Both the position numbers and the translations under genes were made by a program. The notes beneath the pieces are model-generated. The model made no database searches and had not been told where the DNA came from. It saw only the letters and a program-made list of their open reading frames with translations. Below are positions 26,332-49,418 of a DNA stretch of 64,000 bases, in pieces. Source of the stretch: Kitasatospora sp. NBC_01246 (GTDB taxonomy: Bacteria; Actinomycetota; Actinomycetes; Streptomycetales; Streptomycetaceae); NCBI RefSeq assembly GCF_036226505.1, contig NZ_CP108484.1:4712001-4776000 (forward strand). Direction: 5' to 3'. The number at the start of each line of letters is the position of its first letter. Position 1 is the stretch's first letter.

Positions 26332-28677
26332 ATGTCTCTCGTTGACGACGCCCGCTTCGCCATGCCCGCGAGCGAGTCCGCCGCCGATGTCACCCTCGTC
26401 GATGCCCCCGAGGTCGAGCTGTTCGACGCCGACCAGGACATCGACCCCGCCGCCGACCAGGACGCCGCCGACGAGGCCGCGACCGAGGAGAGCGCCGAGG
26501 CCGCCGAGCCCACCATCACCTTCGGCGACCTGGGCCTGCACGACGACGTCGTGCGCGCCCTCGCCAAGCGCGGCGTCACCACCCCGTTCCCGATCCAGGC
26601 CGCGACCATCCCGGACGCGCTGGCCGGCAAGGACGTGCTGGGCCGGGGCCGTACCGGCTCCGGCAAGACCCTCAGCTTCGGCCTGCCGCTGCTGACCCGC
26701 CTCGCCGGCGGCGAGCGCACCAAGCCCAAGCACCCGCGCGGCCTGATCCTCGTCCCGACCCGCGAGCTGGCCATGCAGGTCGCCGACGCGCTGGAGCCGT
26801 TCGGCTCGGTGCTCGGCCTCAAGCTCAAGGTCGTCTGCGGCGGCACCTCGATGTCGAACCAGATCTACGCGCTGGAGCGCGGCGTCGACGTCCTCGTCGC
26901 CACCCCCGGCCGCCTGCGCGACCTGCTGAACCGCGGCAGCGCCAAGCTGGGCGAGGTCAAGACCGTCGTGCTCGACGAGGCCGACCAGATGGCCGACATG
27001 GGCTTCCTGCCCGAGGTCACCGAGATCCTCGACCAGGTGCCGGCCGGCGGCCAGCGCCTGCTGTTCTCCGCCACCCTGGAGAACGAGATCGACAGCCTGG
27101 TCAAGCGCTACCTGAAGAACCCGGTCACCCACGAGGTCGACCCGTCGGCCGGCGCGGTCACCACCATGACCCACCACATCCTCGTGGTGAAGCCCAAGGA
27201 CAAGGCGCCGATCACCAACGCGATCGCCGCCCGCAAGGGCCGCACGATCATCTTCGTCCGCACCCAGATGGGCGCCGACCGCGTCGCCGAGCAGCTCATC
27301 GAGGCCGGCGTGAAGGCCGACGCGCTGCACGGCGGCATGACCCAGGGCGCCCGTACCCGCGTCCTCGGCGACTTCAAGGACGGCTACGTCAACGTCGTCG
27401 TCGCGACCGACGTCGCCGCCCGCGGCATCCACGTCGACGGCATCGACCTGGTCCTGAACGTGGACCCGGCCGGTGACCACAAGGACTACCTGCACCGCTC
27501 CGGCCGCACCGCCCGCGCCGGCCGCTCCGGCGCCGTCGTCACCCTGGTGCTGCCGCACCAGCGCCGTGGCGTGTTCCGCCTGATGGAGGACGCGGGCGTC
27601 GACGCCTCGCGCCACATCCTCGACCACGCCTTCGACGCCGAGGTCGCCAAGATCACCGGCGCCCGTTCGCTGATCGAGGTCCAGGCCGAGAGCGCCGCAG
27701 GCATCGCCGGTGCCGCCGAGCGCGAGCTCGCCGACATGACCCGCCAGCTGGAGCGCGCGCAGCGCCGCGCCACCGAGCTGCGCGAGGAGGCCGACCGCCT
27801 GGCCGCCCGCGCCGCGCGCGAGCGGGCCGACCTGGGCATCGAGGACGAGGCGCCCGCCGCCGAGGCCGAGGCCGCCGAGACCGCCGAGGCCGCCGAGGTT
27901 CCCGCGGAGACGGCCGCCCCGGCCGCCGCCGTGACCGAGGAGCGGGCCCCGTCCTACCGCGAGGCGCGCACCGAGCGCCCGGCGTACAACCGTGACCGTG
28001 ACGACCGCGGTGGCCGTTCCTTCGGTGACCGTGACAACCGCGGCGGTGGCTTCAACCGTGACCGTGACGACCGCGGCGGCCGCTCCGGTGGCTTCAACCG
28101 TGACGACCGTGGCGGCCGTTCCTTCGGTGACCGTGACAACCGTGGCGGTGGCTCCGGTGGCTTCAACCGTGACGACCGCGGTGGCCGTTCCTTCGGTGAC
28201 CGTGACAACCGCGGCGGTGGCTTCAACCGTGACCGTGACGACCGCGGCGGCCGCTCCGGTGGCTTCAACCGTGACGACCGTGGCGGCCGTTCCTTCGGTG
28301 ACCGTGACAACCGCGGCGGTGGCTCCGGTGGCTTCAACCGTGACGACCGCGGTGGCCGTTCCTTCGGTGACCGTGACAACCGTGGCGGTGGCTCCGGTGG
28401 CTTCAACCGTGACCGCGACGACCGCGGCGGCCGCTCCTTCGGCGACCGTCCGGCCCGCACCTTCGGTGACCGTCCGGCCTTCGGCCGCGACGAGCGTGGC
28501 GCCGCCGGCAGCAGCAGCCGTCCGTTCTCCCGCCGTGACGACCACCGCTCCGGTGGCCGCCCGCAGGCCTCCGGCGGCTTCAACCGTGACCGCGGCGACG
28601 ACCGCGGTGGCCGCTCCGGCGGCTTCAACTCCGGTGGCTTCAACCGCGACGACCGCAAGCCGCGCTGGAAGAACTGA
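26332..28677 (+). CDS. DEAD-box ATP-dependent RNA helicase with long RGG-like tail
   Basis: A 781-residue helicase of the RhlE/DeaD group that unwinds RNA during ribosome assembly or decay. An acidic N-terminus (1-60) precedes the Q motif (TFGDLGL, PFPIQ), Walker A GRTGSGKT (106-113), PTREL, DEAD (216-219), SAT and HRSGRTARAGR. A helical, Glu/Ala-rich linker (about 455-540) leads to a tail of repeated RDDRGGRSFGDRDNRGGG blocks (about 553-750). Two 57-residue units (561-617, 618-674) are identical at protein level. Such tails bind RNA non-specifically and promote condensates. GGAAGG precedes the ATG. Confidence 0.95.
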   Translation: MSLVDDARFAMPASESAADVTLVDAPEVELFDADQDIDPAADQDAADEAATEESAEAAEPTITFGDLGLHDDVVRALAKRGVTTPFPIQAATIPDALAGKDVLGRGRTGSGKTLSFGLPLLTRLAGGERTKPKHPRGLILVPTRELAMQVADALEPFGSVLGLKLKVVCGGTSMSNQIYALERGVDVLVATPGRLRDLLNRGSAKLGEVKTVVLDEADQMADMGFLPEVTEILDQVPAGGQRLLFSATLENEIDSLVKRYLKNPVTHEVDPSAGAVTTMTHHILVVKPKDKAPITNAIAARKGRTIIFVRTQMGADRVAEQLIEAGVKADALHGGMTQGARTRVLGDFKDGYVNVVVATDVAARGIHVDGIDLVLNVDPAGDHKDYLHRSGRTARAGRSGAVVTLVLPHQRRGVFRLMEDAGVDASRHILDHAFDAEVAKITGARSLIEVQAESAAGIAGAAERELADMTRQLERAQRRATELREEADRLAARAARERADLGIEDEAPAAEAEAAETAEAAEVPAETAAPAAAVTEERAPSYREARTERPAYNRDRDDRGGRSFGDRDNRGGGFNRDRDDRGGRSGGFNRDDRGGRSFGDRDNRGGGSGGFNRDDRGGRSFGDRDNRGGGFNRDRDDRGGRSGGFNRDDRGGRSFGDRDNRGGGSGGFNRDDRGGRSFGDRDNRGGGSGGFNRDRDDRGGRSFGDRPARTFGDRPAFGRDERGAAGSSSRPFSRRDDHRSGGRPQASGGFNRDRGDDRGGRSGGFNSGGFNRDDRKPRWKN
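28012..28353 (+). repeat. 171-bp tandem duplication inside the helicase gene
   Basis: Bases 28012-28182 and 28183-28353 are identical at 170 of 171 positions; the only difference is a silent CGT/CGC arginine codon. Shorter partial copies continue to about 28440. The unit length is a multiple of three, so gain or loss keeps the frame. Confidence 0.93.
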
Positions 28678-43971: not shown

Positions 43972-45420
43972 TCAGGCCGTCCGCAGCAGCTCGCAGAGCG
44001 CGTCCAGGGCGGCCGGGAAGAGCCGGTCGTGCGGCGTGGCGTAGCCGACCACCAGGGCCGGCGAGGCGTCCGGGGCGAGCGCCGGGTCGGCCAGGTGCCA
44101 GGAGAGGCCGGTGACGGCCAGGTCGAGCGTCCCGGCGCGGGCCAGCAGTTCGGCCTCCGTCGGCGCCCCGGGCGGCAGTTGCAGCACGGCGTGGAGCCCG
44201 GCGGCGATGCCCGTCACCCGGACGTGCGGGGCGCGTTCGGCCAGTGCCGCCACGAGCGCGTCGCGGCGCCGCCGGTAGTGCAGCCGGCAGCGGCGCACGT
44301 GCCGGTCGTAGGTGCCGGAGGTGATCAGCTCGGCGAGGGTCAGCTGGTCCAGCACGGGGGACATGGTGTCCGCCAGCTGCTTCCGCCGGGCCACCGGCTC
44401 GACCAGGGCGTCCGGCAGGGCGAGCCAGGCCAGCCGCAGGCCGGGCGCCAGGCTCTTGGCCGCGGTGCCCGCGTACACCACCCGTTCCGGGTCGAGCGCC
44501 TGCATCGCCCCGAGCGGCTGCCGGTCGTAGCGGAACTCGCCGTCGTAGTCGTCCTCGATCACGTACCCGTCCTGCTCGCGGGCCCAGCCGACGGCCGCCG
44601 ACCGGCGTTCGGCGGCCAGCGCGGCGCCGGTCGGGTACTGGTGGGCGGGGGTGAGCAGGACGGCCGCGTCCCGCCGGGCGCCGAGCAGGTCCGTCCGGGC
44701 CCCCGCGCAGTCCACCGGCAGCGGCGCCGGGGTCAGCCCCGCGGCCCGGACCATCTCGCGCTGCGGGGGCAGACCGTACCCCTCGACCGCCAGGGTGCGG
44801 GTCCCGCGCGTCCGGGCCGGACCGCGCTCGCGCAGGGCGGCGCAGAGCAGGCCGATGCCCTGGGTGAAGCCGGAGCAGATCAGCAGGTGGTCCGGGTCGG
44901 TCCGGACGCCGCGCACCCGGGCGAGGTAGTCGGTGAGCGCCTGCCGCAGCTCGATCCGCCCGAGCGGGCTGCCGTAGCCGAAGGCCTCGTGCGGCGCGGT
45001 GGCGAGCGCCCGCCGCGCGGCGGTCAGCCAGGCGGTGCGCGGGAAGAGCGAGACGTCCGGCCGCCCGGGCGTCAGGTCGTGGCGGGCGGTCCGGCGCTCG
45101 GGCGGCGCCTCGGCCGGGCGACGGCCGGACCGCGGGGCGGTCCGCCCGGCCACCGTGGTGCCCGAGCCCTGCCGCGAGGCGAGCCACCCCTCGGCGGTCA
45201 GCTGCCCGTACGCCTCGACCACGGTGTTGCGGGCGATCCCGAGGTCCTCGCCGAGCGCCCGGGAGGAGGGCAGGCGCGTCCCCGGGGCCAGCCGGCCGTC
45301 CTGCACGGCCTCCCGCAGCGCGTCCTCCAGGGCCGCCCGCAGGCCGACCCCGGCGGCCCGCCGGCCACTGAGGTCGAGGTGCAGATCGCCGCCGAACGCG
45401 GTCCAGGAGGTGGTGCTCAT
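43972..45420 (-). CDS. MocR/PdxR-type regulator (GntR HTH fused to aminotransferase fold)
   Basis: A 482-residue fusion. The GntR winged HTH (about 18-88) contains [26 protein letters not shown] class-I aminotransferase domain follows, with [16 protein letters not shown], where Lys322 would hold pyridoxal phosphate. MocR proteins sense PLP or amino-compound adducts and control vitamin B6, GABA or taurine genes. Its ATG overlaps the stop of the upstream CMD reading frame (ATGA), so it may be in the ECF41-driven transcript. No pdx genes are nearby. Confidence 0.92.
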
Positions 45421-46031
45421 GGGGAGGGCCGATCCGTGCGGGGCGCTGTGCCGTCCGGGTTGTGTCCGTAGGGGATTATCGCGTGGCCGCGGGCGGCTGG
45501 GCGGCGGCCCCGCCCCCCGCGCCGCCGGTCGGTGCCGGTCGGTGCCGGTGCGCGGGCCCGCACCGCGGTCAGCCCCAGGTCGCGCCGGCGGGCTCCCTGG
45601 ATGGTGGCGTTCAGCCGGTTGAAGAGGTTGGTCAGGCCGATCATCAGAATGATCGCGGAGAGCTGCTCCTCGTTGAAGTGGTCGGCGGCCTCGTCCCAGA
45701 CCGCGTCCGGCACGGCCGGGCCGGAACGGTCGGCCAGCCGGGTGGCCGCCTCGGTCAGGGCGAGGGCCGCGCGCTCCTCCCCGGTGAAGAAGGGGGCCTC
45801 GCGCCAGGCGGCGACGGCGTGCAGGCGCTCGTCGGTCTCACCGGCCTTCTTCGCGTTGGTCACCCCGGCGAAGACGCACGCGGAGCAGCCGTTGATCTGG
45901 CTGGCCCGCAGGTGCACCAGCTCCATGATCTGGGGCGGGACGCCGCCCTGGTACATGGCCTTGTAGATGTTCTGGATGCCCTTCATCGCGTCGGGCAGGA
46001 CCATCGCGGGGTTCTTCATCCGAGCGGTCAC
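45417..46031 (-). CDS. Carboxymuconolactone decarboxylase (AhpD-like) protein with frameshifted C-terminus
   Basis: Residues 1-145 are a normal CMD/AhpD-like protein: [11 protein letters not shown] with redox Cys49 and Cys52, [22 protein letters not shown], and [11 protein letters not shown]. The family normally ends about 8 residues later. Here the frame continues 59 residues in basic, low-complexity sequence. In the next frame the sequence reads EPAGATWG and stops at 45569-45571, a typical family ending. One surplus G (a C in the plus-strand run 45595-45597) explains this. GGAGGAAAC precedes GTG 46031. A predicted ECF41 promoter drives it. Confidence 0.85.
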
Positions 46032-46102
46032 GGCGTTTCCTCCGTCGCGTCAGGAGCCCGAGTGCCTTGCGCGCCGGGCCGGTTATCGTCCTTCACTGCA
46101 CC

Positions 46103-46129
46103 GACGGATCGCGGAACGGGGATGTGACA
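46103..46129 (-). promoter_or_regulatory. ECF41-type promoter driving the CMD gene
   Basis: On the minus strand TGTCACA (46129-46123) is followed by exactly 16 nt and CGTC (46106-46103). This is the published ECF41 consensus (TGTCACA -35, CGTC -10). It points at the CMD gene 72 nt downstream and overlaps the ribosome-binding region of the divergent ECF41 sigma gene. Confidence 0.85.
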
Positions 46130-46130
46130 G

Positions 46131-47036
46131 GTGAGCGGGAACGAATGTCTGGCCGGGCAGTTCGAGGAGCACCGGCTCCAACTGAGGGCGGTCGCCTACC
46201 GGATGCTGGGCTCGCTCAGCGAGGCCGAGGACGCCGTCCAGGAGACGTGGTTGAAGCTGGACCGCTCGGACGTCAGCGCCGTGCAGAACCTCGGCGCCTG
46301 GCTGACCACCGTGGTCGGCCGGGTCTGCCTGGACCTGCTGCGCTCGCGCACCGCGCGGCGCGAGGACCCGCTGGACGGGCCGGACGGGCAGGAGGGCGCG
46401 GTCCGGCTGCCCGATCCGGTGGTCGGCGCCTTCGGCGTCGTGGACCCGGAGCAGGAGCTCCTGATGGCCGACTCGGTCGGGATCGCGCTGATGATCGTGC
46501 TGGACACGCTCGCCCCGGCGGAGCGGCTCGCCTTCGTCCTGCACGACCTGTTCGCCGTCCCGTTCGACGAGATCGCGCCGATCCTCGGCCGCACCTCCGC
46601 CTCCACCCGCCAACTGGCCAGCCGGGCCCGCCGCCGCGTCCAGGGCGCCGCGCCCGCCCAGGACGGCGACCTGAACCGCCGCCGCGAGGTGGTGGACGCC
46701 TTCCTCAGCGCCGCGCGCGGCGGCGACTTCGACGCCCTCCTCGCGCTGCTCGACCCCGGGATCGTGGCCCGCTCGGACGGCGGCGCCCTGCGGCCGAGCA
46801 CGCTGCGCCGCGGTGCGGCCGAGGTCGCCTCGCAGGCGATCACCTTCGCCCGCTTCGCCGAGAACGCCCGCCCGGTGCTCGTCAACGGCGCGCCCGGGGT
46901 GCTGTCCTTCGCGGACGGCAAGCCGCTGTCGCTCATGGCGTTCACCATCCGGGACGGCCGGGTCACCGCGCTCGACATCCTCACCGATCCGGAGCGGCTG
47001 GCCCGGATCGACCTGGGGCCGATCCTCGGCGGCTGA
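46131..47036 (+). CDS. ECF41-type RNA polymerase sigma factor (SigJ-like)
   Basis: A 301-residue sigma-70 family factor. Region 2 has YRMLGSLSEAEDAVQETWLKL. Region 4 has TLAPAERLAFVLHDLFAVPFDEIAPILGRTSASTRQLASRARRRV. A C-terminal SnoaL/NTF2-like domain (about 180-295) replaces an anti-sigma factor and includes SDGGAL and DPERL, like the DGGGK and NPDKL motifs that modulate ECF41 activity. ECF41 genes typically sit beside CMD, oxidoreductase or epimerase genes; here a CMD gene is divergent. The start is GTG 46131. Confidence 0.92.
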   Translation: MSGNECLAGQFEEHRLQLRAVAYRMLGSLSEAEDAVQETWLKLDRSDVSAVQNLGAWLTTVVGRVCLDLLRSRTARREDPLDGPDGQEGAVRLPDPVVGAFGVVDPEQELLMADSVGIALMIVLDTLAPAERLAFVLHDLFAVPFDEIAPILGRTSASTRQLASRARRRVQGAAPAQDGDLNRRREVVDAFLSAARGGDFDALLALLDPGIVARSDGGALRPSTLRRGAAEVASQAITFARFAENARPVLVNGAPGVLSFADGKPLSLMAFTIRDGRVTALDILTDPERLARIDLGPILGG

Positions 47037-47891: not shown

Positions 47892-48713
47892 CTATCCGAT
47901 CCGGCGCCAGCCGCCGGGCGTGCCCGGCTCCGTCACCGGGGTCGGGCCGAAGTCGTACCGCGGCCCGTCGGGCCCGAAGGCGAGCAGCGAGATCGAGGAC
48001 GAGCCCCAGATCCGCCCGTCGCCGAACTCCCGTCGCTGGACCAGCGCGGCCGGATCGTCGAGCGCCAGGCCGTCGCCGGAGACGATCGGCAGCCAGGCGC
48101 CCCAGGCCTGCTCGGTCGTGGTGGGGCCGGGCCGCGGCGCGGGCCGGACGGCGGCCCGGAAGCGGGCCCGGAAGTGCGCGGCGCGGGCGGCCATCAGCGA
48201 GCGGACCAGTTCGGACGCGGTGCGGTCCGCCGCCAGCCCCTCCGGTCCGTCGTTGAGCACCACGCTCAGCCCGACCGGCAGGTCGCGTTCCGCCAGGATG
48301 CTGCCGCCCCAGCTCAGTACCCGTGCGCCGGCCCGGCCGGCGAGGACGAGGTGGAACGGGTCGTACCGCTCCAGGTCGACGCCGGCGAGGCCGCCGTCCC
48401 GCAGGGCGATCAGCGGCAGCTCCCCGCGCGAGAGCCGGGCCCGGGCGGGTGCCATGGCCCCGAAGCCGTTCAGCAGACAGGCCGCGGCCGGCCCCGCGGT
48501 GCCCGGCTCCGTGGCCCCGGGCACCGCGGCCCCCGGTTCGATGGCGAGCCACGTCCCGCCCGCCGCAAGGTCGAGCCCGCCGACGGCCGCCGGGTGCGCG
48601 GGCCAGTGGTGGTCCGGCGGGGACCACCGCCGCCCGGCGTACTCGTCCCGCACCGACAGCAGCAGCACGGGCACCGATGCCGACGGTTCGATGCTGACGA
48701 ACGCGGTACACAC
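47892..48713 (-). CDS. NRDE (TANGO2-like) family protein
   Basis: A 273-residue protein that starts MCTAFVS and has the RDE motif at 22-24 (VRDEYAGR), the N-terminal signature of the NRDE/TANGO2 family; mature members expose Cys2 as an Ntn-type N-terminus. GGTWLAIEP is the next family motif. The biochemical role is unresolved, and human TANGO2 is linked to lipid metabolism. GTG 48713 is chosen because the next residue must be the conserved Cys. It converges with the gene at 47312. Confidence 0.85.
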   Translation of the reverse strand: MCTAFVSIEPSASVPVLLLSVRDEYAGRRWSPPDHHWPAHPAAVGGLDLAAGGTWLAIEPGAAVPGATEPGTAGPAAACLLNGFGAMAPARARLSRGELPLIALRDGGLAGVDLERYDPFHLVLAGRAGARVLSWGGSILAERDLPVGLSVVLNDGPEGLAADRTASELVRSLMAARAAHFRARFRAAVRPAPRPGPTTTEQAWGAWLPIVSGDGLALDDPAALVQRREFGDGRIWGSSSISLLAFGPDGPRYDFGPTPVTEPGTPGGWRRIG

Positions 48714-48944
48714 GATCCTGGCCCCCTGACCTCGCCCACCCCGGGCGGCCCGGCTGCACCACCCTCCCCGCGATCCTCGCACGATCGTTCGGACCCGGGC
48801 AGGTCCGGGCCCTCGCCCTCCGGCGCCCGCCGTGCCACACTCGGGCGAGCCGCCCGAGGGCCTGCCCCGACCGTGAAGTGGCCCACGATCTCTCGGCCCG
48901 AATGTGCCAGGGAGCCAGTCCAGTCGGACCCTAGGCTGGCCGGT

Positions 48945-49418
48945 ATGACGACGAACGACAACGCCACCGTGTCCGCCCCCGAGCAGCGGATCTCCCTCCC
49001 CGACCTCGCCCCCGAGTTCTACCGGGCCATGATCGCCCTGGACCGCGCCGCCCAGCAGGGCGTCGACCCCGTCCTCGCCGAGCTGGTCAAGGTGCACGCG
49101 TCGATGCTCAACGGCTGCTCCTTCTGCATCGACATGCACGCCACGGACGCCCTGAAGAACGGCGAGCAGAACCACCGGCTGCTCTCCCTGCCGGCCTGGC
49201 GGGAGACGTCCTGGTTCACCGCCGAGGAGCGGGCCGCCCTCGCGCTGACCGAGTCGGTCACCCTGCTGACCCAGGGGCACGTGCCGGACGCCGTCTACCA
49301 GGAGGCCGCCGAGCACTTCGAGCAGGCCGAGCTGGCCCAGCTGATCGCGCTGATCATCGCCATCAACTCCTGGAACCGGATCGGCGTCACCTCCCGCCTC
49401 AGCCCCGCCGCGAAGTAG
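48945..49418 (+). CDS. Carboxymuconolactone decarboxylase (AhpD-like) family protein
   Basis: A 157-residue CMD protein with NGCSFCIDMH, giving the CxxC plus His triad of AhpD-like peroxidases, and [25 protein letters not shown]. The normal C-terminus (INSWNRIGVTSRLSP) is intact here, unlike the CMD gene at 45417. No ECF41 consensus is visible upstream. It is 10 nt upstream of the PEP-mutase-like gene and probably co-transcribed. Confidence 0.92.
   Translation: MTTNDNATVSAPEQRISLPDLAPEFYRAMIALDRAAQQGVDPVLAELVKVHASMLNGCSFCIDMHATDALKNGEQNHRLLSLPAWRETSWFTAEERAALALTESVTLLTQGHVPDAVYQEAAEHFEQAELAQLIALIIAINSWNRIGVTSRLSPAAK

What the first reader, a model, noticed from the sequence alone, without database searches (positions are those of the whole stretch)
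46103..46131. Exact ECF41 promoter between the sigma factor and its divergent CMD gene
The sequence shows TGTCACA, a 16-nt spacer and CGTC on the minus strand, pointing at the CMD gene. This equals the published ECF41 -35/-10 pair, and the adjacent sigma gene is ECF41-like with a C-terminal SnoaL domain. The -35 lies 2 nt before the sigma GTG, so polymerase at this promoter would cover the sigma ribosome site. This predicts the direct target and possible self-limiting of sigma translation.
Basis: partly seen in the sequence, partly recalled or inferred. Interest (0 to 1): 0.75.

Follow-up and report, generated by a model that had tools for sequence, protein, structure and literature searches.

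The report
Half of a face-to-face sigma-factor promoter
A bacterial gene-control protein and the enzyme gene it probably switches on share one short stretch of DNA, and in many related bacteria that stretch holds two facing start signals that probably cannot both be used at once; this genome has kept only the enzyme's half.

Summary
TGTCACA-N16-CGTC lies on the minus strand at 46103-46129, the only exact copy in the window. Five copies exist in the 8.93-Mb genome and four precede a CMD-family gene. It equals the ECF41 promoter mapped by Wecke et al. 2012. In the window's clade it is exact in 17 of 20 loci. The -35 fills the gap between the sigma gene's ribosome-binding site and its start codon.

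Many ECF41/SigJ-type sigma genes carry two face-to-face ECF41-type promoters, one for the sigma gene and one for the divergent target, with -10 elements 8, 9 or 11 bp apart. In 396 phylum genomes, 27 of 29 sites at those gaps begin a sigma gene, against 2 of 21 examined at other gaps. The two halves should exclude each other.

CMD was lost repeatedly while the promoter stayed, now facing a MocR-type gene, a possible further target. All functional statements are inference. The single promoter is known; I found no description of the facing geometry in the papers searched.

The parts
46103..46129 (-). Target-side ECF41-type promoter (P-): -35 TGTCACA 46123-46129, -10 CGTC 46103-46106, 16-nt spacer
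   Evidence: Only exact match in the window; exact in 17 of 20 clade loci, one -35 mismatch in 2, lost in 1; equals published consensus
46118..46122 (+). Likely ribosome-binding site of the sigma gene (GGGGA), inside the promoter spacer; the -35 fills the gap between it and the GTG
   Evidence: Sequence; GAGGA-type block conserved in 19 aligned loci
46131..47036 (+). ECF41/SigJ-like sigma factor, GTG start, 301 aa, C-terminal NTF2/SnoaL-like domain
45417..46031 (-). CMD/AhpD-like protein with a CSAC (CxxC) motif, GTG start; expected target
   Evidence: PF02627 1.2e-17; sequence
43972..45420 (-). MocR-type (GntR + aminotransferase) regulator; ATG overlaps the CMD stop as ATGA (45417-45420); possible second target
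   Evidence: directly faces the retained promoter in 6 CMD-less loci
46082..46095 (+). Conserved GTTATCGTCCTTCA element (GTTA.CGTCCgTCA in the clade); contains TATCGT (46084-46089), possibly the -10 of the present sigma-gene promoter; covers the relic -10 of the sigma-side ECF41 promoter
   Evidence: Footprint of 19 loci
46068..46094 (+). Place where the sigma-side promoter P+ sits in face-to-face relatives; decayed here (TGCGCGC for the -35, CTTC for the -10)
   Evidence: Position; letters read by eye; no site scores at this place in the window

Best explanation
46103-46129 is the target-side half of what was ancestrally a face-to-face pair of ECF41-type promoters. One half (P+) drove the sigma gene. 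The other (P-) drives the divergent COE gene, here CMD, probably with the downstream MocR gene. In complete pairs the two -10 elements face each other 8, 9 or 11 bp apart, so both directions would melt the same stretch and two polymerases should not bind at once. The P- -35 lies in the sigma gene's SD-to-start gap. Inferred working: sigma-RNAP chooses between making more sigma and making target. In the window's lineage P+ has decayed and P- is intact. Sigma is then made from another, perhaps weak promoter (candidate: the conserved TATCGT -10), and sigma-RNAP at P- should reduce sigma transcription as HrpL does. Shown here: motif, conservation, geometry, association with sigma genes, absence of P+. 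Inferred: promoter activity, exclusion, sign of feedback, direction of the evolutionary change, MocR as target.
For: Exact motif and chance estimate. Four of 5 exact genome sites precede CMD-family genes. In 19 aligned loci the upstream flank averages 0.43 bits per column and the sigma 5' end 0.98; the -10, spacer and -35 average 2.00, 1.70 and 1.92, the GTTA block 1.42 (-10 and -35 columns partly fixed by the search pattern). Start codon 1-2 nt after the -35 in 19 of 19. Face-to-face pattern in 396 phylum genomes: 58 sites in 51 genomes, control 0; 29 sites at gaps 8/9/11 and 29 over the 26 other gap values. A sigma gene begins at 27 of the 29 sites at gaps 8/9/11 and at 2 of the 21 examined at other gaps. 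In the 30 family loci fetched by the tool itself: 15 of 16 at gaps 8/9, 1 of 14 at others. Eleven of 80 named relatives have the pair beside sigma, including a Rhizobium and a Chloroflexi bin. Four clade members have P+. Mirror case L064: no CMD or MocR found, P+ 19.0, P- 9.3, under the 10.3 cut-off.
Against: No expression data. P+ is absent in the window itself, so the pair is an ancestral reading here. Only 4 of 20 clade loci hold the complete pair; 29 of 80 named relatives hold neither promoter above the cut-off and 26 hold P+ only. Some relatives have both promoters back to back, not facing. Sigma genes also sit at a few other gaps: 4, 16 and 19. The TATCGT element has no recognisable -35. 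The sigma factor's WLPEP and NPDKL motifs are altered. MocR relatives are common in the genus without this sigma factor, and in five clade loci 0.7-1.3 kb lies between CMD and MocR, so MocR as a target may be mere neighbourhood. CMD loss may be too recent for the promoter to have decayed.
Confidence: 0.72

Rival explanations
1. An ordinary ECF41 target promoter of the <ECF< >COE> class, as in Wecke 2012, whose overlap with the sigma start is only a result of a short intergenic region, with no regulatory coupling.
For: Wecke Table 4 counts 55 such loci, 41 with P_COE and 36 with P_ECF. The window has no P+ at the expected place.
Against: The -35 sits 1-2 nt before a start codon in 19 of 19 loci with the motif, and gaps of the facing pairs concentrate at 8, 9 and 11, which a merely short intergenic region does not predict.
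Confidence: 0.3
2. The conserved symmetric block (TCCGTCA-N6-TGACGGA in part of the clade) is an operator for a dimeric regulator such as the nearby MocR, not a promoter pair.
For: The inverted repeat is perfect in three loci (L050, L052, L056); MocR operators can contain inverted repeats (PMC5320631, passages); a MocR match lies on the target side in all 20 clade loci.
Against: The repeat is what two facing -10 elements give. The facing pattern also occurs where CMD-, epimerase-, ABC- and VOC-like genes are the neighbours, and its halves match a promoter mapped experimentally in two species.
Confidence: 0.1
3. Another SigJ-like sigma factor of this genome, not the adjacent one, reads the promoter.
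For: Eight SigJ-like matches of near full length in the genome, the window's own included, and four exact sites before CMD genes, one of them followed by its own sigma gene (L005/L010).
Against: Adjacency, and exact conservation of the site beside this sigma gene in 17 of 20 loci.
Confidence: 0.2

Closest known systems
ECF41 target promoters, B. licheniformis ydfG and R. sphaeroides RSP_0606 (Wecke 2012, PMC3426412)
   Same: TGTCACA with a CGTC or TGTT -10 before a CMD gene; sigma factor with a C-terminal extension; divergent loci often with both promoters
   Different: The text seen (abstract, sections 20, 21, 24, 25, 28 and search passages) gives no facing geometry, no 8/9/11-bp spacing, no -35 in the sigma SD-start gap and no MocR target
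HrpL-hrpJ negative autogenous control in Pseudomonas syringae (PMC5263251, abstract and passages)
   Same: ECF sigma gene divergent from its target; sigma-RNAP at the target promoter lowers transcription of the sigma gene
   Different: There it occludes activator and IHF sites of a sigma-54 promoter; here the two core promoters themselves overlap, and in complete pairs both would use the same sigma factor
Sigma-70 bidirectional promoters of E. coli (PMC12825309, introduction and passages)
   Same: Opposed promoters that only one polymerase can occupy at a time
   Different: There one symmetric -10 is shared, with start sites mostly 18 bp apart; here two separate -10s face each other, presumably read by an alternative sigma factor whose own gene is one of the two products

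Membership tests
ECF41 sigma factor | Sigma regions 2 and 4 | tested here: met
   PF04542 2.6e-14 and PF08281 1.3e-08
ECF41 sigma factor | C-terminal SnoaL/NTF2-like extension of about 100 aa | tested here: met
   SigJ match 7e-44 over residues 9-290; NTF2-like order of elements at 181-297, top fold hit SigJ 5xe7 (mean pLDDT 69, pTM 0.41); no Pfam SnoaL hit
ECF41 sigma factor | WLPEP linker motif and NPDKL C-terminal motif | tested here: not met
   RLPDP and DPERL here, similar forms in the clade: conservative but altered. I therefore call it ECF41-like, not a canonical member
ECF41 sigma factor | Named SigJ family cut-off (NCBIfam NF007214) | tested here: not met
   254.8 bits against 271
ECF41 sigma factor | COE gene next to it and TGTCACA-N16-CGTC before that gene | tested here: met
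ECF41 sigma factor | Activity controlled by the C-terminal extension | not testable with these tools
   Needs truncation assays
Face-to-face ECF41 promoter pair (described here) | Both halves present with facing -10s | tested here: not met
   Window lacks P+ at the expected place; 4 clade relatives have both
Sigma-70-type bidirectional promoter | Shared symmetric -10 element | tested here: not met
   Two separate -10 elements in the complete pairs
HrpL-type negative autogenous control | The sigma factor's target promoter overlaps the control region of its own divergent gene | tested here: inconclusive
   P- lies directly before the sigma gene, but the sigma gene's present promoter is not identified; repression itself is not testable here

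The most novel reading that the evidence does not exclude
Many ECF41-type sigma genes are wired to their target through one interlocked face-to-face promoter pair read by that same sigma factor, with a fixed 8/9/11-bp gap that forces sigma-RNAP to choose between self-amplification and target expression. Loss of one half, as in the window, turns a self-activating circuit into a self-limiting one.
Probability: 0.45. Interest if true: 0.68.

Novelty: new variant of a known kind. Interest (0 to 1): 0.52.

Why it matters
ECF41 is a large group without separate anti-sigma factors, and its circuit logic is little studied. A fixed promoter geometry that ties sigma production and target production to one polymerase-sized site gives a simple rule that can be tested with a two-colour reporter. 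Natural half-losses (window: sigma side; L064: target side) give matched variants.

Tried and rejected
Loose pattern GACG-N15..17-TGTGACA-N0..3-RTG in 297 family genomes: 160 have a match, but the reversed control also hits many, so I drew no count from it. The + strand site 46123-46149 (2 mismatches) lies inside the sigma gene start and was rejected as a promoter. A + strand score at 46026-46051 in the window (13.7, above the 10.3 cut-off) scores in no other clade locus at that place and was taken as chance. The exact site L002 precedes no CMD gene and was taken as chance. A sigma-70-like -35 for the TATCGT element was sought by eye and not found.

MocR as a strict partner of this sigma factor was rejected: 65 of 70 genus genomes have a MocR match at E<=1e-120. 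L051 and L064 were left out of the 19-row footprint because they lack the pattern. The locus L036 (71% identity) and a second contig copy in G045 were in the same identity range but not fetched; L036 falls outside the clade.

Limits of the geometry counts. The 20 stretches were chosen by me because their gaps were 8, 9 or 11; with the 30 loci fetched by the tool they cover all 29 sites at those gaps, while 8 of the 29 sites at other gaps were not examined for neighbours. One search's listing was cut, so its gap counts are for 75 listed sites only. One site is in both the named and the phylum set (L154 = L223), so the 40-locus set holds 39 distinct sites. L141 is counted 'P- only' because the scored stretch was cut at -110; the pattern search shows its pair.

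Papers seen: PMC3426412 (abstract, sections 20, 21, 24, 25, 28, passages), PMC12825309 (section 4, passages), PMC5263251, PMC8999054, PMC7730460, PMC5320631, PMC6180224 (passages). Searches for a prior description. Searches listed only part of their papers. 'ECF41' with 'bidirectional' gives one paper, unrelated by its title. Of the 7 papers with 'ECF41' and 'divergent' I looked into 3. The 2021 ECF reclassification paper (recalled) is not held and could hold relevant material.

Full report
1. Observation. The minus strand at 46103-46129 reads TGTCACA-N16-CGTC exactly. No other exact copy exists in the window; base composition predicts 0.012. The genome has 5 exact copies, the reversed control none. 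Four of the five precede CMD-family genes: the window, L001, L003 and L005, the last followed by a SigJ-like paralogue in CMD-then-sigma order. L002 looks like chance. The published ECF41 consensus is the same (PMC3426412), with start sites mapped and sigma-dependence shown in two species. A Sinorhizobium ECF41 operon has a mapped start with a matching motif (PMC6180224, passages).

2. Proteins. The sigma protein is 301 aa, aligns over nearly its whole length with SigJ models (below cut-off) and with the SigJ crystal structure 5xe7 (7e-44). A modest AlphaFold model (mean pLDDT 69, pTM 0.41) gives an NTF2/SnoaL-like C-terminal domain, and SigJ is the top fold match. The WLPEP and NPDKL signatures of ECF41 read RLPDP and DPERL here, so I call it ECF41-like. 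The CMD protein has CxxC (CSAC). Its stop overlaps the ATG of a MocR-type regulator (ATGA, 45417-45420).

3. Conservation. All 70 genus genomes searched have a SigJ-like match. I fetched 20 loci at 71-81% identity. The tree puts 19 of them and the window in one clade (100/100); L064 falls outside. In these 20 loci the promoter is exact in 17, has one -35 change in L045 and L054, and is gone in L051. In the 19 loci with the pattern, an ATG or GTG follows the -35 after 1-2 nt. Upstream flank columns average 0.43 bits and the sigma 5' end 0.98; promoter parts average 1.7-2.0 and an upstream GTTA.CGTCCgTCA block 1.42; the -10 and -35 columns were partly fixed by the search pattern.

4. CMD loss. 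Eight of the 20 clade loci have no CMD match between sigma and MocR. A MocR match lies on the target side in all 20 (L055 reaches the contig end, L053 is partial); in L046, L050, L052, L056 and L061, 0.7-1.3 kb lies between CMD and MocR. The tree needs 7 changes of CMD state, at least 3 forced by well-supported branches. The promoter is exact in 6 of the 8 CMD-less loci, where it lies 105-143 nt from the MocR match start; one-off in L045, where another ORF intervenes; lost in L051. This fits MocR as a second target, but MocR relatives occur in 65 of 70 genus genomes, so neighbourhood alone is possible.

5. Face-to-face pairs. Among 80 named relatives, themselves the best 80 of 452, a cut-off at the 99th background percentile gave P+ only 26, P- only 12, both 13, neither 29. 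Ten of the 13 with both have -10s facing 8-9 bp apart; three are back to back. By pattern search 11 of 80 have the facing pair beside sigma: Pseudonocardia, Nonomuraea, Rhodococcus (2), Actinomadura, Saccharothrix, Streptomyces, Kribbella, a Solirubrobacteraceae bin, a Chloroflexi bin and a Rhizobium; two further matches (L122, L140) lie far from sigma.

6. Test of the geometry. Pattern GTCAC-N18-GTC-N{0,28}-GAC-N18-GTGAC in 396 phylum genomes: 58 sites in 51 genomes, control 0. Gaps 8, 9, 11 hold 6, 11, 12 sites; the 26 other gap values hold 29 in all. Sigma genes begin at 6 of 6, 9 of 11 and 12 of 12 sites at gaps 8, 9, 11, and at 2 of the 21 examined elsewhere (gaps 4 and 16). One of the two misses, L207, ends at a contig end. 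In 297 family genomes 91 have a match, while the control hits 8 genomes; of 75 listed sites 40 are at gap 8 and 6 at gap 9. In the 30 of these loci that the tool fetched, a sigma gene lies within 300 nt at 15 of 16 sites at gaps 8/9 and 1 of 14 at others (L239, gap 19). Opposite genes include CMD, NAD-epimerase-like, ABC ATPase, VOC-like and others, named by eye from sequence, many of them COE classes of Wecke.

7. The window within this. Four clade loci (L050, L052, L056, L061) have the facing pair with gap 8. The window's P+ place reads TGCGCGC and CTTC, so P+ is lost; P- scores 19.9. L064 is the mirror: no CMD or MocR match, P+ 19.0, P- 9.3. I infer an ancestral pair and loss of one half in each lineage; the direction is inferred, not computed.

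8. Mechanism. The cores overlap, so one polymerase should exclude the other. E. coli bidirectional promoters show such competition (PMC12825309), and HrpL shows a sigma factor lowering its own gene's transcription from a divergent target promoter (PMC5263251). In the window this would be negative feedback on sigma transcription; in complete pairs, competition between self-amplification and target. The sigma gene must now start from something else; the conserved TATCGT is my best candidate, without direct evidence.

9. Known or new. The promoter and the divergent layout are known (Wecke Table 4). I found no description of the facing geometry in the passages read or in searches, within an open-access library only and partly from cut listings. 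Verdict: new variant of a known kind.

Noticed in passing
L001:1568-2071: CMD-family gene behind an exact ECF41-type promoter whose CxxC is replaced (GSTYL), unlike the ECF41-linked CMDs that Wecke describes as all having CxxC.
   Followed up: partly
window 48174-49418: A second AhpD/CMD-like coding stretch in the window, on the plus strand (by eye), with no ECF41-type promoter before it in the list.
   Followed up: no
40 face-to-face loci (one counted twice, L154 = L223): The base after the -10 CGTC is A in 31 of 40 (sigma side) and 36 of 40 (target side), suggesting a longer -10, CGTCA; the window has G.
   Followed up: partly
genus sites such as G036:C1:4420619-4420678: A second face-to-face type with GTCACC...GGTGAC-like outer boxes beside other SigJ-like paralogues, perhaps a different -35 specificity.
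   Followed up: no
window 28010-28378: Near-identical stretches recur at spacings of 69 and 102 bp in the listing, suggesting a tandem repeat.
   Followed up: no
window 45417-45570: The window's CMD is 204 aa with an odd C-terminal tail; 11 clade relatives' CMD ORFs are 154-181 aa and most matches end at residue 145, perhaps a lost stop.
   Followed up: no
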